64,000 nucleotides of DNA from Prochlorococcus marinus str. AS9601 (GCF_000015645.1 NC_008816.1:1-64000); one strand, 5' to 3'. Shown: positions 55,985 to 64,000, counted from the first letter of the stretch. A program made the numbers and translations. Notes: a model not told the origin generated them from the sequence alone.

Positions 55985-56030
55985 CCCCAAACTACTGTTA
56001 TAGCAATAGATTACAAGGAACGCAAAACTC

Positions 56031-56052
56031 ATATAACACCAATATAACACTA
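56031..56052. repeat. tandem ATATAACAC motif at left edge of accessory block
   Basis: ATATAACACCA and ATATAACACTA stand in tandem 46 bases after the argJ stop. Similar TATAACACTA motifs recur at 63521-63530 and 63583-63592, on the other side of the accessory block. The match is only about ten bases, so it could be chance in AT-rich DNA, but the pairing at both edges is noted. Confidence 0.4.
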
Positions 56053-56080
56053 CATTTAAACATGAAAATCGAAATCTCTA

Positions 56081-59000
56081 TCAAAGATTTTTTTTATTGC
56101 TAGTAACCCAAATAAACCCGATATCATTTAACTCCTGTATCCTTTCTGAAGGAAGATCATTTTTCCTTTGCCTTATTTTTGACACCCACTGTCCAAGAAT
56201 AGGTTCTTTTCGTGGCACTTTTGTATGACCATGTTTTTCTTTAAATTTTTTAAGAAGAGTTATTTTTTCGTTCCATTCATAAGACAAGATATCCCAAATA
56301 AATCCGATATCATCTAACTCCTGTATCTTTTCTAAAGGAAGACTATTTCTCTTTTGCCTTATATTTGACACCCACGGTCCAAGAATAGATTCTTTTGATG
56401 GTACTTTCGTATGCCCATGCTTTTCTTTGAATTCCTTTAGAAGAATAATATTTTTTTTCCATGAATCGGCATGATGATTATCCCAACTAAACCCGATATC
56501 ATTTAACTCCTGTATCTTTTCTTGTGATAACTTATGTTTTCTTGTTCTCATTCTATTTGCCCAAGTCCCAAGAATTGGTTCTTTTTGTGGAACTTTTGTA
56601 TGCCCATGCTTTTCTTTGAATTCCTTTAGAAGAATAATATTTTTTTTCCATGAATCGGCATGATGATTATCCCAACTAAACCCGATATCATTTAATTCCT
56701 GTATCTTTTCATGCGATAGTTTATGTTTTCTTGTTCTTATACTATTTGTCCAAGTCCCAAGAATTGGTTCTTTTTGTGGAACTTTTGTATGACCATGTTT
56801 TTCTTTAAATTTTTTAAGAAGAGTTATTTTTTCGTTCCATTCATAAGACAAGATATCCCAAATAAACCCGATATCATTTAATTCCTGTATCATTTCTGGA
56901 GAAAGATCAATTTTTTTTGATCTCAAACGTGCAACCCATTCTCCAATAACAGGTTCTTTATGTCGCACTTTTGTATGTCCATGCTTTTCTTTGAACTCCT
57001 TTAGAAGAATAATATTTTTTTTCCATGAATCGGCATGATGATTATCCCAACTAAAACCGATATCATCTAACTCCTGTATCTTTTCTGAAGGAAGACTATT
57101 TCTCTTTTGCCTTATATTTTGCACCCACTGTCCAAGAATAGGTTCTTTTCGTGGCACTTTTGTATGTCCATGCTTTTCTTTGAACTCCTTATGAAGAATG
57201 ATATTTTGGTTCCATTCATAAGATGGGACATCCCAAATAAACCCAAAATTATCTAACTCCTGTATCTTTTCTAAAGGAAGACTATTTTTCTTTTGCCTTA
57301 TATTTGACACCCACTGTCCAAGAATAGGTTCTTTTTGCGGAACTTTTGTATGCCCGTGTCTTTCTTTGAATTGCTTTAAAAGACTAATTCTTTCTTTCCA
57401 TTCATGAGATGCAATATCCCAAATAAACCCAATATCATTTAACTCCTGTATCTTTTCTGAAGAAAAATTATTTTTATTGCTTCTAAGATTCGTTACCCAC
57501 AGTCCAAGAATAGGTTCTTTTTGTGGAACTTTTGTATGACCATGTTTTTCTTTAAATTTTTTAAGAAGAGTTATTTTTTCGTTCCATTCATAAGACAAGA
57601 TATCCCAAATAAACCCGATATCATCTAACTCCTGTATCCTTTCTGAAGGAAGATCATTTTTCCTTTGCCGCATATCAATAATCCACCTACCTATTATTGG
57701 GGTTTGAACGGGAACTTTTGTATGACCATGTTTTTCTTTAAATTTTTTAAGAAGAGTTATTTTTTCGTTCCATTCATAAGACAAGATATCCCAAATAAAT
57801 CCGATATCATCTAACTCCTGTATCCTTTCTGAAGGAAGATCATTTTTCCTTCTTCTGAGAGTAGATACCCACAGTCCAAAAATGGGTTCTTTTTGAGGAA
57901 CTTTTGTATGACCATGTTTTTCTTTAAATTTTTTAAGAAGAGTTATTTTTTCGTTCCATTCATAAGACAAGATATCCCAAATAAACCCCATATCATTTAG
58001 TTTTTTTATCTTTTCTTGTGATAACTTATGTTTTCTTGTTCTCATTCTATTTACCCAAGTCCCAAGAATTGGTTCTTTTGATGGTACTTTCGTATGCCCA
58101 TGCTTTTCTTTGAAATCTAATAATTTTCCATAATTTTCCATCCAATCTTCAGAAGTATTTCTGACTAATAAGGTTTGGATCGAATTTACGAATTCAGGTT
58201 TAATTCTTGCTGGAAAATCTAATTTAATTTTTCCTAATCCTTCTCTTTCTTCTGCTTTGAATTTTCTTTTACCTAAATTGACTCTTAATTGATCGATGTA
58301 TTCCATTAATGTGTCATCTTGTGATTTAAGTGCAAGGATTACTTGCCAAACGCTTTTAAATCTACTTTTTAGAATTTCATCCTCTGTATTAAAACTATTT
58401 CCTATAAAGACAGGAATGAGAATTGTCCCGCTTGATTTATCATCACTTTTTCGTATTGCTCTTCCAACTGCTTGGATAATATCAATTTGACTATATCTAG
58501 GATCAATAAATCCAACTCCATCTAAAGTGGGAACATCAACTCCTTCTGATAGACATTTTGCATTTGTGAGTATTCTTATTTCTCCTTTATCAAGATTTTT
58601 TAGTTTCTCAATTTTGTCATTACGTTCTTTTGTTTTCATAGCACCAGAAACATAATCTGATTGGATTACCCCTGCTGGAAGATCTTTTTTCGGTATAAGT
58701 TGAATAATTTTTTCAAGATCTTGAGCAAATCTTTCTGATGACTCAACTCTGCTATGAAAAGTGATAACTCGTTTTAATCCGAAATCTTTAATTGCTTTTG
58801 TTAAAGCAATTTTTGAAGCCAATGTTTCCGCATCCAATAAATCTTCTCCATCAGTTGAAACAAAATCTCTGTTAATAATTTTTTCTTTAATCATCTCGTT
58901 ATCAACTCCAATAACTACAACTTGATAGTCAGATAAAATCTCTTTTTTTATTGCTTCTGAGAATTTAAGTTGATAGAGAATTTCCCCAAAGATATTAGTA

Positions 59001-60106
59001 TCGTCCATAGATGCAATTTCAATATCATTTATATTTGCTTTTGATTTGATTTGATTTGATAGGACTCTTGGAGTTGCCGTTAAGAATAATCTTTTGTCAC
59101 CTCTAATTCTTACTTCATCAAGAACACATCCATAGGCATCAGATACTATTCCTGTGCAACGGTGTGCTTCATCCGCAAAAATTAGATCAAATTTATGTGC
59201 TTTTTCGTCTAAATGGACCTTTTCAATCAAGTGAGATGACTGGTATGTCGAAAAAATAACTTTAGATCCTCTTTCTTTTAGAAAATTATTTATTTCCTTA
59301 ATTTCACTAGTAACTGGAACTCCTATTTCGGATGTATTTGTTATCCATTCATCATTTGTTTTATTCTTTTTTGCTACAGATTTATCGGAACATACACAGA
59401 TCCATTTGAATGGTTCCGATGCATTAGCATTCCATTCTTTTAGTGTCTGTGATAAGAGACTTAATGATGGTAGTAAAACAAGAACGTTTTTCGCTTTTAA
59501 TGCTTCTTTAATCCATAAACTAGTAAGCGTTTTACCTGTCCCACATGCCATTAAAACTTGCCCACGATTTGCAGTCTTGAGTCCTTGAATGACTGCATTT
59601 ATTGCTTTTTTTTGATGTTTTCTAGGGTCTTTTATTTTTTTTCTCTTTCCGTTTGATAAGTCTTTTATATGATTAGGAAAGATGATTTGTGAATTGCGAA
59701 AATCATTAAGCAAATATCTTATGACTTTATGTCTGTGAAGTAACCGATCAGCATTATTTCCAATGCGATCAGTGCTTGCTACTAATAAGCGACCTTGAAA
59801 TCTGGAATCAGAAGACTCTGAGATAAAACTATCCATATCTTCTTTCTTGATACTTGATTCAGGTGCAAAGCATTTTGCCTGAACTGCCCAAGTTTTATTT
59901 TGGAAGTCTTCAAAAACTAAATCTATTCCACAATCTGGACCCCATTCACTCCTTTTAGGATGCTCATCCCATAACCAAATATTTTTTACCTGTGATTCCC
60001 AAACTGGATCATTTTTAAGGAACCACTTTATAAATTTTTCAAACTGCTTACCTCTGATTCTTGGATCAGAATCTAATGATGAATAAAACTCATCAAAGGT
60101 TGCCAT
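56081..60106 (-). CDS. Mrr-like nuclease - SF2 helicase - 11x HA-repeat protein
   Basis: A 1341-residue protein. Residues 15-130 hold an Mrr-like PD-(D/E)XK fold with Asp62 (GIDLVFED) and Gln76/Lys78 (WAVQAKCF). Residues 160-600 are an SF2 helicase: Walker A ACGTGKT (187-193), ADEAH (311-315), TATPR (343-347) and QAVGRAIRKS (545-554). From about 655 to the end, 11 helicase-associated (HA) repeats of 62-63 residues follow. Each has KHGHTKVP, G-x-W, an R-x-x-K basic patch and GF-I/S-W. HA domains are predicted three-helix nucleic-acid binders. This layout lacks the methyltransferase of type ISP restriction enzymes. It is joined to the upstream TPR gene with no spacer. A defence or targeting role is inferred, not shown. 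Confidence 0.92.
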   Translation of the reverse strand: MATFDEFYSSLDSDPRIRGKQFEKFIKWFLKNDPVWESQVKNIWLWDEHPKRSEWGPDCGIDLVFEDFQNKTWAVQAKCFAPESSIKKEDMDSFISESSDSRFQGRLLVASTDRIGNNADRLLHRHKVIRYLLNDFRNSQIIFPNHIKDLSNGKRKKIKDPRKHQKKAINAVIQGLKTANRGQVLMACGTGKTLTSLWIKEALKAKNVLVLLPSLSLLSQTLKEWNANASEPFKWICVCSDKSVAKKNKTNDEWITNTSEIGVPVTSEIKEINNFLKERGSKVIFSTYQSSHLIEKVHLDEKAHKFDLIFADEAHRCTGIVSDAYGCVLDEVRIRGDKRLFLTATPRVLSNQIKSKANINDIEIASMDDTNIFGEILYQLKFSEAIKKEILSDYQVVVIGVDNEMIKEKIINRDFVSTDGEDLLDAETLASKIALTKAIKDFGLKRVITFHSRVESSERFAQDLEKIIQLIPKKDLPAGVIQSDYVSGAMKTKERNDKIEKLKNLDKGEIRILTNAKCLSEGVDVPTLDGVGFIDPRYSQIDIIQAVGRAIRKSDDKSSGTILIPVFIGNSFNTEDEILKSRFKSVWQVILALKSQDDTLMEYIDQLRVNLGKRKFKAEEREGLGKIKLDFPARIKPEFVNSIQTLLVRNTSEDWMENYGKLLDFKEKHGHTKVPSKEPILGTWVNRMRTRKHKLSQEKIKKLNDMGFIWDILSYEWNEKITLLKKFKEKHGHTKVPQKEPIFGLWVSTLRRRKNDLPSERIQELDDIGFIWDILSYEWNEKITLLKKFKEKHGHTKVPVQTPIIGRWIIDMRQRKNDLPSERIQELDDIGFIWDILSYEWNEKITLLKKFKEKHGHTKVPQKEPILGLWVTNLRSNKNNFSSEKIQELNDIGFIWDIASHEWKERISLLKQFKERHGHTKVPQKEPILGQWVSNIRQKKNSLPLEKIQELDNFGFIWDVPSYEWNQNIILHKEFKEKHGHTKVPRKEPILGQWVQNIRQKRNSLPSEKIQELDDIGFSWDNHHADSWKKNIILLKEFKEKHGHTKVRHKEPVIGEWVARLRSKKIDLSPEMIQELNDIGFIWDILSYEWNEKITLLKKFKEKHGHTKVPQKEPILGTWTNSIRTRKHKLSHEKIQELNDIGFSWDNHHADSWKKNIILLKEFKEKHGHTKVPQKEPILGTWANRMRTRKHKLSQEKIQELNDIGFSWDNHHADSWKKNIILLKEFKEKHGHTKVPSKESILGPWVSNIRQKRNSLPLEKIQELDDIGFIWDILSYEWNEKITLLKKFKEKHGHTKVPRKEPILGQWVSKIRQRKNDLPSERIQELNDIGFIWVTSNKKNL
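56090..58125. repeat. tandem array of eleven 186/189-bp HA repeats
   Basis: The conserved HGHTKV codons recur from 58102 down to 56233 with a period of 186 or 189 bases. Stretches of 70-80 bp are identical between several units (the NEKITLLKKFKEKHGHTKV part and the DILSYEW linker). The segment coding G-x-W-x-x-x-x-R-x-x-K differs from unit to unit. Two linker types occur, giving the unit lengths 62 and 63 residues. This is in-frame coding DNA, not a CRISPR array. Confidence 0.93.
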
Positions 60107-60859
60107 TTAAAGGGTTCTAAGGAAACAGTATGGGTCTGTAATGACCTTATAGAAGAGTTTATATTTTTTTGGTGCTACATATCCATTACTTTTTGCTAAT
60201 TGATAATCTTCACAAGCGCCTCGCCTATCGCCTGCAAGATTTCTTTCTCTTGCTCTTTTCATAATTAGATTATTTTTAGTCTTTAGTTCAAATCTTGCAA
60301 AATTGCTTGGTAAACAATTCTCTGCAAAAACATTTTTTGCTCTTTTATTTCTATTTCCCTTCTCAATTCCTTTTCCCCAGTCATCACATGCGCCTTTAGC
60401 ATCCCCAATAAGTTCTTTAAGTATTCCTCTATTGAAGTATGAATGTTGAAGTTCTATTTCTTTGGAAATTGCTTTTGAATAATCTTTAATAGCACTTATA
60501 TTTCTTTTTAAATTTGCATTCGCTCTTGCGCGATTATATAAAGCAGGTCCATTAGTAGGATCTATTGCTAGTAGTTGATTTAGATCTTCTACAGCACCTT
60601 GATAATCCTTTAATTCACTCTTTGAATATGCTCTACTAAATAATGCATAAGTATTCTTTGAATTGAATTTTAATGACTCTGTATAATCTTCTATCGCACT
60701 TTTATGATCATCATAGAAGTATCGTTTCTTGTCGCCTTCTGCGCTAAGTTCTATTGATTTATTAGTATCAGGAATAATACTTTTTGCTTTCGATTTATCG
60801 CTAAATATCGTTGGTGTTGTTGCAAAGAAAATAGAAACTATTAAAGGGTAAATTTTCAT
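60107..60859 (-). CDS. secreted TPR protein, copy 1
   Basis: A 250-residue protein with a signal peptide (MKIYPLIVSIFFATTPTIFS, cleavage about 20-26). Three to four TPR units occur at about 45-160 (SAIEDYTESLKFNSKNTYAL, GAVEDLNQLLAIDPTNG). Two Cys-containing capping motifs follow: GDAKGACDDWGKGIEKG and GDRRGACEDYQLAKSNG. It is paralogous to the gene at 61428-61985. Its TAA is followed at once by the ATG of the nuclease-helicase, so the two are likely one transcript. A periplasmic product ahead of a cytosolic enzyme is odd. Confidence 0.8.
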   Translation of the reverse strand: MKIYPLIVSIFFATTPTIFSDKSKAKSIIPDTNKSIELSAEGDKKRYFYDDHKSAIEDYTESLKFNSKNTYALFSRAYSKSELKDYQGAVEDLNQLLAIDPTNGPALYNRARANANLKRNISAIKDYSKAISKEIELQHSYFNRGILKELIGDAKGACDDWGKGIEKGNRNKRAKNVFAENCLPSNFARFELKTKNNLIMKRARERNLAGDRRGACEDYQLAKSNGYVAPKKYKLFYKVITDPYCFLRTL

Positions 60860-60950
60860 ACTTCAAATAATATAAAGATCTTGTTTATTTAATTTAGAGC
60901 AGATGCAGAATAATGCTATGTGGCTTATCTCTTATTAATTAAAACTAAAA
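60860..60950. promoter_or_regulatory. divergent promoter region, copy 1
   Basis: This 91-bp segment lies between the start of the TPR gene (minus) and the start of the NW-IPPV gene (plus). By eye it differs at only three positions from 61986-62076. The central part GAGCAGATGCAGAATAATGC is identical. Such conservation in non-coding DNA suggests recent duplication or gene conversion, or a shared operator. No specific factor site can be named. Confidence 0.7.
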
Positions 60951-61403
60951 ATGTTGGTTATCAATTCAAATAGACAAGAATTCGAGAATTGGATGAATAA
61001 TGCAGCAATAAAAGAACCCGAAAAAACAAATTTCCATAACTGGATATACAATAGTCCACTTGATATTTACATTCCAAAAATACCTCCAGTAGGATGCACT
61101 ATATCAGCAGGTTGGTGCCAGGGTGATTACAACGGATATGTATTTGATATAACGGTATCTATCGATCATTTTGATTGGATGAGTTATATCAACAAAGAGT
61201 ACAAATATATTTCTATCGATTCAGAGGTAATCAAATACTTAAATTGGATTGGAGATATTCCAACTATTCGTTTTTATATAGATCAGCGAACTGGATATTT
61301 TGATAAAAAAGCACATAAAAAAATAAGTGTTTATTTAATCAAAGAGGATGAAAAATTTTATGAGATTGAGGCAGAAAAGAAATTTAATTTGAAAGTAAGT
61401 TAA
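60951..61403 (+). CDS. NW-IPPV family protein, paralogue 1
   Basis: A 150-residue protein of a family I do not recognise. The N-terminus has FENWMNNAAIKEPEKTNF and SPLDIYIPKIPPV, then a beta-rich region (GYVFDITVSIDHFDWMSYI), a second NW motif (YLNWIGDIPTIRFYIDQRTG) and a basic tail. No signal peptide or membrane segment is present. The first 48 residues are nearly identical to the gene at 62077, with later parts diverged. It is convergent with TPR copy 2 (24-base gap). Confidence 0.75.
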   Translation: MLVINSNRQEFENWMNNAAIKEPEKTNFHNWIYNSPLDIYIPKIPPVGCTISAGWCQGDYNGYVFDITVSIDHFDWMSYINKEYKYISIDSEVIKYLNWIGDIPTIRFYIDQRTGYFDKKAHKKISVYLIKEDEKFYEIEAEKKFNLKVS

Positions 61404-61427
61404 ATATTTTTTTACAGTCTTATTGGT

Positions 61428-61985
61428 TCAAACAGATTTGCAATGATTTTCAAAAGCGGAAGATGCTTTTTCATTGCCCAATGCGCCACTTTTTTGCCAG
61501 TCTGAGCATGCTCCTTCTTTATCTTGCATAATCTCTTTTAGAAATCCCCTATTTCCATATGAATCTTTAAGCATAAGATCATATGCTATTAATTTTGAAT
61601 AATCATCCATCGCCTCTGGATAATTTTCTAATTTAATATTGACCCATGCTCGAAGTGCTACTGCAGCATTATATTCTGAATCGATTTTCAATATAGTATT
61701 TAAATCTTTTAGTGCACTTTTATAGTCTTTTAATTCTTTTTTTGAATACGCTCTTAAAAGTAATGCAAATTTGTTTTTTGGATTAGTTTTTAATGCTTCT
61801 GAGAATTTTTTACTTGCATGAATATAATTTTTTTCCTTCAAGATCTCATAACCATTATTTGTTATTTTTTCAGATGAAGTTATATTTTTGACCTTATTAA
61901 AGTGTTTATGCGCTTCTGCATTTGGAGTGAACATTAAAGATGGTATTGCTAATAAACTTGCAATTATGAAATGGTAAATTTTCAT
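61428..61985 (-). CDS. secreted TPR protein, copy 2
   Basis: A 185-residue paralogue of the TPR gene at 60107-60859. The signal peptide MKIYHFIIASLLAIPSLMF ends in a good AxA site (NAEA-H). TPR units follow at about 40-145 (ASKKFSEALKTNPKNKFAL, SALKDLNTILKIDSEYN). The Cys-containing cap is DKEGACSDWQKSGALGNEKA, and it ends with a second Cys (ENHCKSV). It lacks the extra C-terminal part of copy 1 and is not followed by a helicase gene. It is divergently paired with the gene at 62077. Confidence 0.78.
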   Translation of the reverse strand: MKIYHFIIASLLAIPSLMFTPNAEAHKHFNKVKNITSSEKITNNGYEILKEKNYIHASKKFSEALKTNPKNKFALLLRAYSKKELKDYKSALKDLNTILKIDSEYNAAVALRAWVNIKLENYPEAMDDYSKLIAYDLMLKDSYGNRGFLKEIMQDKEGACSDWQKSGALGNEKASSAFENHCKSV

Positions 61986-62076
61986 ACTTCAAAAAATATA
62001 AAGATCTTGTTTATTTAATTTAGAGCAGATGCAGAATAATGCTATGTGGCTTATTTCTTATTAATTAAAATTAAAA
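61986..62076. promoter_or_regulatory. divergent promoter region, copy 2
   Basis: The second copy of the 91-bp divergent intergenic segment described at 60860-60950, three differences by eye. It has the same length and the same relation to a TPR gene and an NW-IPPV gene, so the whole module was duplicated with its control region. Confidence 0.7.
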
Positions 62077-62577
62077 ATGCTGGTTATAAATGAGCAGAGA
62101 CAAGCATTCGAGAATTGGATGAATAATGCTGCAATAAAAGAACCTGAAAAAACAAATTTCCAAAAATGGATATACGATAGTCCACTTGATATTTACATTC
62201 CAAAAATCCCTCCAGTTGAATGTTCGATAGGATCACATAAACGCGGATTTGTATTTGATATCTTGGTCTACATAAATGGGATTGATTGGTTGAATTACAT
62301 TAATGTAAGTTATATTTCTGTTGATTCTGAGGTAAATTACTTTCTCAATTGGATTGAAAAAGTTCCTTCTAGTCGTTTTTCAATAGATGAGAGAGAAGAA
62401 TATTTTTGGGACTGTTCTCCTAAAGATGATTATCAACGATACGTAAATACTTTTAGAGCACTTAAAAAAGTAAGTGTTGTTGTAGTTGAAGAATATTGGA
62501 AAACTAAAGAATTAATTGAAGAATATTGGAAATCAAAAGTATTAGAAAAAAAACTTACTAACAATCTTCATCAATAA
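62077..62577 (+). CDS. NW-IPPV family protein, paralogue 2
   Basis: A 166-residue paralogue of the gene at 60951. FENWMNNAAIKEPEKTNF and SPLDIYIPKIPPV are retained, followed by GFVFDILVYINGIDWLNYI and FLNWIEKVPSSRFSIDERE. The C-terminus is unique, with a doubled motif (VVEEYWKTKELIEEYWKSKVLEKK) that looks like a short duplicated helix. Its stop overlaps the next start (TAATG), so it is translationally coupled to paralogue 3. Confidence 0.75.
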   Translation: MLVINEQRQAFENWMNNAAIKEPEKTNFQKWIYDSPLDIYIPKIPPVECSIGSHKRGFVFDILVYINGIDWLNYINVSYISVDSEVNYFLNWIEKVPSSRFSIDEREEYFWDCSPKDDYQRYVNTFRALKKVSVVVVEEYWKTKELIEEYWKSKVLEKKLTNNLHQ

Positions 62578-63074
62578 TGCTATATAAACATCATTTAAAA
62601 GAATTTGATTCTTGGTTGGAAAATAGTTTGATGAATGATTCAGATAAAATTGCTTTTGACCAATGGATAAAAAACAGTCCAAATCCTATCTATTTGCCAG
62701 AGATACCACCTGTAAATGGTTCTTTCCGCGATCCAAATGGATATTTATGGTGTGCTTATTTAATTAAAATTAGAGTTCAAATAGATAATGATGCATGGGA
62801 AAAAAATTTAAATAAAAAATTTTCAAGTATTCAAAATAAAGAAATTATTGACTTCCATAATTGGTTTTTAAATTGTCCATTAAGGTCTTGTGGTATTGAC
62901 GAGAGAAAAACTGGATATTCTTATCCTCGTTATGATTTTAAAAAGCGCCGTTGGGTTGGGAGAAGACAGTCTTTGCTTTACTTAACGGTAAGTACAATAA
63001 AAACTAATTCTATTTACTTCGAGAACCTTAGAGATCAATCAGTTGATCAAAGATACAAGGAGTATTCATATTAA
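62577..63074 (+). CDS. NW-IPPV family protein, paralogue 3
   Basis: A 165-residue, more distant paralogue. FDSWLENSLMNDSDKIAFDQW and NSPNPIYLPEIPPV align with the N-termini of paralogues 1 and 2, and FHNWFLNCPLRSCGIDERKTG with the second NW block. The tail is basic (KKRRWVGRRQS). Three paralogues in a row suggest a locally expanding family. No function is known to me. Confidence 0.73.
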   Translation: MLYKHHLKEFDSWLENSLMNDSDKIAFDQWIKNSPNPIYLPEIPPVNGSFRDPNGYLWCAYLIKIRVQIDNDAWEKNLNKKFSSIQNKEIIDFHNWFLNCPLRSCGIDERKTGYSYPRYDFKKRRWVGRRQSLLYLTVSTIKTNSIYFENLRDQSVDQRYKEYSY

Positions 63075-63076
63075 AA

Positions 63077-63229
63077 ATGAAAAAATATTTGATATCAGGT
63101 TTAGTCGATTCATACAGGATAAAAATAAATTTATTTGCTATTTCGCCAAATAGTGCGATCAGCGTCTTTAAGCAAAAATATCCAAACGCAGAGGATATTT
63201 ATGTCATTCAAGATTTATTTAAGAAATGA
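63077..63229 (+). CDS. 50-residue small ORF coupled to the next gene
   Basis: An ATG frame two bases after the previous stop. It codes 50 residues: a strand-like start (MKKYLISGLVDSYRIKINLF) and AISPNSAISVFKQKYPNAED, ending DLFKK. The TGA overlaps the ATG of the next gene (ATGA), an overlap typical of true coupled genes. Its composition looks like a small alpha/beta domain. Too short for recognition. Confidence 0.6.
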   Translation: MKKYLISGLVDSYRIKINLFAISPNSAISVFKQKYPNAEDIYVIQDLFKK

Positions 63230-63459
63230 AAGTACCTGATAAAGAATTTTTTGAAAAAAATAAAGTCCACCTTGAAATGTTGACTATTAAGGGTGAATGG
63301 AAAAGATTAGATACTTTTTATGATTATTCGACAGCAATCAGTCATGGAGTAAATAAATATTTTGCAACACATACTGCCCACAGATTAGTTAACAAAGAAG
63401 GAAAGATTCTTGAATTATTTGATTCAACATTATTAGAAGATGTTGATAACAAAGAATAA
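63226..63459 (+). CDS. 77-residue hypothetical protein
   Basis: A charged 77-residue protein (MKVPDKEFFEKNKVHLEML, GEWKRLDTFYDYSTAISHG, acidic tail LLEDVDNKE). It has no signal or membrane segment and no family I recognise. It is the last gene of the plus-strand string starting at 62077, coupled to the 50-residue ORF by a 4-base overlap. Confidence 0.62.
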   Translation: MKVPDKEFFEKNKVHLEMLTIKGEWKRLDTFYDYSTAISHGVNKYFATHTAHRLVNKEGKILELFDSTLLEDVDNKE

Positions 63460-63741
63460 TTAATTAAATAAAGATAACTGACCCTAAGTAATATTTAATT
63501 TCATGTTGTTGTAGCACCTTTATAACACTAGTTCAGTGATACCAATTGGTTTGACCCTGTGAAAAAAGGTTTGTAACACCTATATAACACTAATTTTGGA
63601 AGTAAGAACCCAGTGATACCAATGGATTTGGGGTTATATATGTATCAATAGCGAGTATACTACTTAGTTGAGATCCATTGCAGGGCAAGCGATCTCAGCG
63701 TTTCTAAAAATTCATAAACCGGTAATAAACCAGTAAATTAA
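63460..63741. other. non-coding region with short imperfect repeats
   Basis: No ORF is supported in these 282 bases. GTARCACCTWTATAACACTA occurs at 63511-63530 and 63573-63592. CAGTGATACCAAT plus a GGTTTG or GGATTTG ending occurs at 63534-63553 and 63611-63630. Together they form two imperfect direct copies about 62 and 77 bases apart. A promoter-like TATACT and a hairpin follow at 63656-63699. Confidence 0.75.
63656..63699 (+). promoter_or_regulatory. TATACT box followed by a strong hairpin, possible small RNA
   Basis: TATACT at 63656-63661 is a good -10 hexamer. About seven bases on, GTTGAGATC (63667-63675) pairs with GATCTCAGC (63691-63699), with a G-T wobble. Inside, TTGC (63778 analogue: 63678-63681) pairs with GCAA (63685-63688) around AGG. 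A transcript from this box would start at the hairpin. No T-run follows in either direction, so a plain terminator is less likely. No -35 box is clear. Confidence 0.4.
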
Positions 63742-64000
63742 TTATTTGAGTTTATAAACTGCTAAATCTTTTGATTTAAGATCTCCAAGTGCGACTTTTT
63801 CTAATCTTTCTAGCCTTGCTAAGAGTTGTTTATTTTTTTCTTCTAGAGTTTTGATTTTTGTTTCGAAATTCTCTTTTTCATTCATACTAATTTGAATAGG
63901 TTTTGTGGCCTTACCTAATTTCCAAACAAATCCTGCTCTAGCGGAAAAAGTATCTTCAAAATCACCGGCATAATCTTGACCTGGCATTGTCATTGACGCC
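63742..64000 (-). CDS. C-terminal fragment of a probable surface protein
   Basis: The frame stays open through the end of the window (codons before the internal Met read Ala-Ser), so only the C-terminal 86 or so residues are seen. FSARAGFVWKLGKATK looks like the last strand of an outer-membrane barrel or YadA-like anchor. It is followed by a coiled coil (NFETKIKTLEEKNKQLLARL) and a Lys-rich end. This is consistent with a large outer-membrane or surface protein, but the fold is inferred from a short piece. 39 bases upstream of the stop side lies the hairpin region. Confidence 0.55.
   Translation of the reverse strand, partial: ASMTMPGQDYAGDFEDTFSARAGFVWKLGKATKPIQISMNEKENFETKIKTLEEKNKQLLARLERLEKVALGDLKSKDLAVYKLK

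What the first reader, a model, noticed from the sequence alone, without database searches (positions are those of the whole stretch)
56081..60106. Nuclease-helicase with an 11-unit HA-repeat array in place of a methyltransferase
Seen: an Mrr-like PD-(D/E)XK core (Asp62, Gln76, Lys78), a full set of SF2 helicase motifs, and eleven HA repeats filling half of the 1341 residues. Known: COG4889-type/type ISP restriction enzymes combine an Mrr-like nuclease and a helicase with a methyltransferase and target-recognition domain. HA domains are predicted nucleic-acid binders. Inference: the array may act as a modular target-recognition or processive DNA-binding arm of a single-protein defence or DNA-processing system that needs no methylation. 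No methylase gene lies nearby.
Basis: partly seen in the sequence, partly recalled or inferred. Interest (0 to 1): 0.82.

Follow-up and report, generated by a model that had tools for sequence, protein, structure and literature searches.

The report
Methylase-free DNA cutter with variable repeat array
This ocean cyanobacterium gene encodes a likely DNA-cutting motor protein built like a known class of virus-fighting enzyme, but where that class carries a self-protecting methylase it carries eleven near-identical repeats whose few variable residues change almost completely between close relatives, as expected if they choose the target.

Summary
The gene (minus strand, 56081-60106, 1341 aa) encodes an intact Mrr-type nuclease (D62, Q76, K78), an SF2 motor and exactly eleven HA repeats. 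Its first 610 residues are homologous to the type ISP enzyme LlaBIII (E 2e-84; predicted fold agrees). The type ISP coupler, methyltransferase and target-recognition domains are absent. It is a Prochlorococcus accessory gene (15 of 266 genomes, several insertion sites). The same Mrr-SF2-HA layout occurs in several other phyla, so it is not unique. The strongest new evidence is evolutionary. Four or five positions per repeat vary, mostly on one face of the middle helix, with pN/pS about 0.8-1.9 there against 0.3-0.6 elsewhere. The same positions vary in other phyla. Proteins with 93-96% identical nuclease-motor halves share none of these residue combinations. Best reading: a methylase-free, type ISP-like DNA nuclease whose HA array is a fast-evolving target-recognition module. 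DNA binding, cleavage, defence and self-avoidance are inferred, not shown. Defence-gene context is clear at one locus and weak overall.

The parts
56081..60106 (-). Mrr nuclease - SF2 helicase - 11 x HA protein, 1341 aa
59684..60016 (-). Mrr-type PD-(D/E)XK nuclease core (residues 31-141; D62, Q76, K78)
   Evidence: Mrr_cat_2 9e-28; residues conserved; aligned to LlaBIII
58271..59641 (-). SF2 translocase/helicase (residues 156-612; Walker A K192, DEAH 312-315, motif VI QAVGRAIRK 545-553)
56084..58153 (-). Eleven HA repeats (residues 652-1341), 186-189 bp units; variable positions 12, 19, 22, 23, 26 of each unit
60107..60859 (-). TPR protein, 250 aa; its stop codon directly abuts the start codon of the nuclease gene (TAAATG), so the two are probably co-transcribed. 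Not an obligate partner
55985..64000 (.). Left part of an insertion between argJ and a ParA-like gene; most relatives examined have about 170-320 bp there. The right end lies beyond the window, at genome position 65494

Best explanation
A single-chain, ATP-dependent DNA nuclease derived from the same Mrr-SF2 unit as type ISP restriction enzymes, in which the methylase and target-recognition half is replaced by an array of HA repeats. Proposed working: the positively charged array binds duplex DNA, each three-helix repeat reading part of the target with residues of its middle helix; binding loads and activates the SF2 motor, which translocates along DNA; the Mrr domain then cuts, probably when two motors meet, as in type ISP. 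With no methylase, self is most simply spared because a long target read by many repeats is absent from the 1.67-Mb genome; a target that is a foreign DNA modification or structure would also work. Fast turnover of the variable residues and of repeat number changes the target. Shown: domains, intact catalytic residues, homology to LlaBIII, absence of a methylase, concentration of variability, decoupled evolution of the two halves, accessory distribution. Inferred: DNA binding, base reading, cleavage, defence role, self-avoidance.
For: LlaBIII match over 12-610 at 2e-84; AlphaFold model of 1-912 (pLDDT 86, pTM 0.72) has LlaBIII as best PDB match. Catalytic and motor residues conserved. No methylase motif in 57 of 57 HA proteins, present in 72 of 74 HA-free Mrr proteins of at least 1100 aa. 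Tree: type ISP forms its own clade, Mrr-HA proteins lie apart. Variable positions 19, 22, 23, 26 are spaced i, i+3, i+4, i+7 and fall in the middle helix; the same positions top the ranking in non-Prochlorococcus proteins (top-6 overlap 5, p 2e-5, Spearman 0.84). pN/pS at those positions in eight other arrays 0.83-1.85, background 0.39-0.60; window 1.59 against 0.31. Chassis 93-96% identical with no shared variable-residue combination; same in betaproteobacterial relatives at 80-90% chassis identity. Array net charge +33. Patchy presence at several sites; one copy starts 2 bp after an Mza defence operon.
Against: No direct evidence that HA arrays bind DNA: the array model has no confident PDB match beyond the single HA domain 2KTA, and its overall shape is uncertain (pTM 0.40). 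The 147 neighbour proteins of 18 relatives have few defence matches, and the commonest recognised families are housekeeping ones. Nuclease-free relatives are common on plasmids and in viral contigs, and some vary as fast. pN/pS near 1-2 with many changes per site is also compatible with relaxed constraint on exposed residues. Short arrays (4-5 repeats) would need about 2-3 bp read per repeat for the target to be absent from a genome this size.
Confidence: 0.55

Rival explanations
1. The array senses a phage protein or other non-DNA ligand, and binding switches on a less specific Mrr-SF2 nuclease (sensor-effector defence, like immune receptors with variable repeat faces).
For: Diversified residues on one face of a helical repeat array also fit protein recognition; chassis and array evolve independently; no need to spare self DNA by methylation.
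Against: The array sits where type ISP enzymes hold their DNA-recognition half, and its net charge is +33 while the nuclease domain is 0. HA domains are annotated as helicase-associated.
Confidence: 0.17
2. A type IV-like enzyme: the array recognises modified or structurally unusual DNA (hypermodified bases, ends, forks), so no methylase is needed, as in SauUSI.
For: Single chain with SF2 motor and nuclease and no methylase; SauUSI is among the PDB matches.
Against: Rapid change of four or five residues in each of 4-11 repeats is more than one modified base would require. SauUSI has a different nuclease (own knowledge) and matches only the motor, weakly, by sequence.
Confidence: 0.13
3. A DNA-processing helicase of mobile elements or repair, not defence; the array is a general DNA-holding arm and its variable residues are merely unconstrained.
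For: Nuclease-free SF2-HA relatives on plasmids and in 26 viral contigs; few defence neighbours; variability could be drift.
Against: Mrr domain in 23 of 34 cellular HA loci and none of 26 viral ones, with conserved catalytic residues. Interleaved scaffold residues (W20, R25) are near invariant while the variable face differs in up to about 90% of comparisons, at the same positions across phyla. Accessory, not core.
Confidence: 0.15

Closest known systems
Type ISP restriction-modification enzymes (LlaBIII, PDB 4xqk; LlaGI, PDB 5ffj)
   Same: Single chain beginning with Mrr-type nuclease and SF2 motor; homologous over residues 12-610
   Different: No coupler, methyltransferase or ISP recognition domain; HA array instead
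SauUSI-type methylase-free ATP-dependent endonucleases (PDB 7clg)
   Same: Nuclease plus SF2 motor in one chain, no methylase
   Different: Only a short stretch of the motor matches by sequence (483-570); no HA array described (own knowledge)
SF2-HA proteins annotated 'DEAD/DEAH box helicase' or 'helicase associated domain protein' (Streptomyces, Rhodococcus, P. aeruginosa plasmids)
   Same: SF2 motor followed by HA repeats
   Different: Many lack the Mrr nuclease; the Rhodococcus qingshengii protein WP_064689746.1 has it, with 8 HA repeats
TALE and similar repeat arrays (recalled, comparison by analogy)
   Same: Near-identical repeats with a few variable residues per repeat
   Different: No detected homology (no TAL family among the Pfam matches); repeats of about 62 aa, three helices; no base code known

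Membership tests
Type ISP restriction-modification enzyme | N-terminal Mrr-type nuclease with D...QxK | tested here: met
Type ISP restriction-modification enzyme | SF2 helicase-like ATPase homologous to LlaBIII/LlaGI | tested here: met
Type ISP restriction-modification enzyme | Coupler domain (PF22240) | tested here: not met
   absent; present in the type ISP protein of the same genus, L053
Type ISP restriction-modification enzyme | N6-adenine methyltransferase with NPPY/F motif | tested here: not met
   (0 of 57 HA proteins); none of three N6 methylase families in the genome
Type ISP restriction-modification enzyme | Type_ISP_C target-recognition domain (PF18135) | tested here: not met
Type ISP restriction-modification enzyme | ATP-driven translocation and cleavage on convergence of two enzymes | not testable with these tools
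   needs biochemistry
HA (PF03457) repeat proteins | HA domains over Pfam's cut-off | tested here: met
   11 of 11 units over the cut-off; single-domain fold matches 2KTA
Type IV (modification-dependent) restriction | No methylase; cuts only modified DNA | not testable with these tools
   absence of methylase in the protein met; substrate unknown
Modular repeat-code DNA-binding protein (TALE-like) | Conserved scaffold with a few diversified residues per repeat | tested here: met
Modular repeat-code DNA-binding protein (TALE-like) | One repeat reads a defined number of bases | not testable with these tools
   no DNA complex or binding data

The most novel reading that the evidence does not exclude
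HA arrays are a modular sequence-reading code: each repeat reads a few base pairs through four or five variable residues, giving a long, rare target that replaces methylation as the means of sparing self, and new specificities arise by repeat turnover. At least one unrelated array (the ~70-residue 'WP' repeats of Planctomycetota) has taken the same place on the same nuclease-motor unit.
Probability: 0.3. Interest if true: 0.92.

Novelty: new variant of a known kind. Interest (0 to 1): 0.7.

Why it matters
If right, this is a widespread single-protein restriction enzyme that needs no methylase and changes target by reshuffling repeats, and it would make the function of HA repeats, unknown so far as I could find in the held library, directly testable. 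A readable code in these repeats would be a new way for proteins to recognise DNA sequence. Even without a code, it adds a methylase-free branch to the type ISP family and offers a system for studying how a nuclease spares its own genome.

Tried and rejected
Unique to this genome: rejected, same layout in other phyla. Obligate partner in the TPR gene: rejected; it abuts the nuclease gene (0-10 bp) at all five argJ-site copies, but 12 of 17 genomes with it lack the nuclease gene and copies at other sites lack it. Broad defence-island signal: weak, only single matches among 147 neighbour proteins. Known global fold for the array: none with confidence. Homology between HA and the WP repeats: none detected by profile comparison. 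Promoter and terminator scans gave fewer matches than shuffled sequence and were not used. Literature: no held paper contains both the phrase 'helicase associated domain' and Prochlorococcus; one broader search gave mostly influenza HA papers. The first run of the relatives' comparison used the wrong tryptophan for the Mrr-HA set and was redone.

Full report
Observation. The gene lies on the minus strand, 56081-60106, and encodes 1341 residues. Pfam finds an Mrr nuclease domain at 31-141, an SF2 motor at 160-553 and eleven HA repeats; a genome-wide HA search finds the same eleven units and no others.

What the first half is. Residues 12-610 align with the type ISP enzyme LlaBIII at 2e-84, and PADLOC's best model is a combined restriction-methylase whose first 656 of 1646 positions match residues 7-613. 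An AlphaFold model of residues 1-912 (pLDDT 86, pTM 0.72) has LlaBIII as its best PDB match. Full type ISP proteins also occur in the same genus: L053 carries the coupler, methylase and ISP recognition domains, none of which is found in the window protein. Among fetched relatives, 0 of 57 proteins with two or more HA repeats have the methylase motif, while 72 of 74 Mrr proteins of at least 1100 aa without HA do. In a tree of the motor domain the type ISP proteins form one clade and the Mrr-HA proteins lie outside it (quick method, some long branches). The genome has no match to three N6-methylase families and one unlinked C5 methylase.

Distribution. In 266 genomes of the genus (Prochlorococcus, by the titles of near-identical records), 15 including the window's own carry a clear orthologue, with 4 to 11 repeats. 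They sit at several sites. At the window's site, argJ is normally followed after about 170-320 bp by a ParA-like gene in the genomes examined without an insertion; in the window about 9.5 kb lies between them. A TPR gene abuts the nuclease gene at all five argJ-site copies but is not an obligate partner. In L048 the gene starts 2 bp after an Mza defence operon; near L042 and L045 are a type IIG-like gene and a C5 methylase. Outside the genus, Mrr-SF2-HA proteins with 2-12 repeats occur in Pseudomonadota, Desulfobacterota, Actinomycetota, Chlamydiota and Bacteroidota. Among 147 neighbours of 18 relatives, defence matches were few. HA repeats on SF2 motors without the nuclease are frequent on plasmids and in viral contigs: 23 of 34 cellular HA loci have Mrr and none of 26 viral ones do, though a divergent Mrr domain could be missed and the loci were picked by similarity to this protein.

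The array. Each repeat is about 62 residues and predicted as three helices. Within the window's eleven repeats most positions are fixed in protein although their codons vary, while positions 12, 19, 22, 23 and 26 carry many different residues. Positions 19, 22, 23 and 26 are spaced as one face of a helix and fall in the middle helix (for repeat 2: residues 745, 748, 749, 752 in helix 744-752). Choosing these positions from the window alone, pN/pS in eight other Prochlorococcus arrays is 0.83-1.85 there and 0.39-0.60 elsewhere; in the window it is 1.59 against 0.31. In HA arrays from other phyla the same positions are among the most variable (rank correlation 0.84 over 48 positions). Scaffold positions are more alike within most proteins than between proteins, while variable positions are, in most proteins, nearly as different within as between.

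Decoupling of the two halves. The window and L039 share 96% of the first 610 residues but have 11 and 6 repeats and none of the five-residue combinations in common; L042 and L046 (93%) and L040 and L041 (85%) show the same. Betaproteobacterial relatives with 80-90% chassis identity repeat the pattern even in the register most favourable to similarity, whereas two mycobacterial proteins at 98% keep the same array. Some nuclease-free HA arrays also differ at the variable positions (for example L163 and L165), so the pattern belongs to HA arrays in general and not to the nuclease fusion alone. Four relatives (L156, L157, L159, L209) carry no HA; the three whose C-terminal half was read (L156, L157, L209) have a different array of about 70-residue repeats on the same nuclease-motor unit, without detectable homology to HA and not recognised by Pfam in the two scanned.

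Interpretation. The position of the array, its charge (+33), and its rapid change at a few positions are best explained if it selects the target. DNA is the likeliest target because the homologous enzymes read DNA with the part that the array replaces (PMC7049714). With about 3.3 million positions on both strands, a target of 11 or more specified bases would usually be absent from the host genome; eleven repeats could supply that at one base each, but four-repeat arrays would need nearly three bases each. This is arithmetic, not evidence. Ratios of pN to pS at heavily changed sites are rough, and relaxed constraint cannot be excluded. The array model has no confident match in the PDB except to the single HA domain 2KTA, and its overall shape is uncertain (pTM 0.40).

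Verdict. Observation confirmed; interpretation partly supported. The protein fails three defining features of type ISP enzymes and should not be filed as one, but it probably works in a related way. It is a new variant of a known kind. The decoupled, concentrated variability of the HA array is the part most worth testing.

Noticed in passing
window 55985-64000 and L290: The argJ - ParA junction is a variable insertion site in this genus: short in many genomes, elsewhere filled with different TPR, surface-protein-like or other genes.
   Followed up: partly
L156, L157, L159, L209: Same Mrr-SF2 unit without HA; L156, L157 and L209 carry an array of ~70-aa repeats (LSxxQILAWADxHxxxTGxWP...) not recognised by Pfam in the two proteins scanned, also variable after an ETW motif.
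   Followed up: partly
L048 1716-9056: MzaBCDE-like defence operon directly upstream of a Mrr-SF2-HA gene in Prochlorococcus.
   Followed up: yes
L055, L056, L047 3092-5440: Prochlorococcus Mrr-SF2 proteins of about 780-800 aa with a short C-terminal region and no methylase or HA; in L047 one lies divergently about 140 bp from a Mrr-SF2-HA gene.
   Followed up: partly
L127 8001-10976: Rhodococcus Mrr-HA protein whose QxK catalytic motif reads ITAT: a probable natural nuclease-dead form.
   Followed up: no
L043 9598-12225: Array interrupted by in-frame stops, with a further HA unit downstream: a decaying copy.
   Followed up: no
L289 5752-11553: The genome's only C5 cytosine methylase match (698 aa) is in an apparent operon with a DUF6339 protein and two unknown proteins: possible separate defence system.
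   Followed up: partly
L089 2893-10314: Mrr-SF2 protein next to an RNase H-like/AAA_12 helicase-nuclease and a relative of the window's TPR gene.
   Followed up: no
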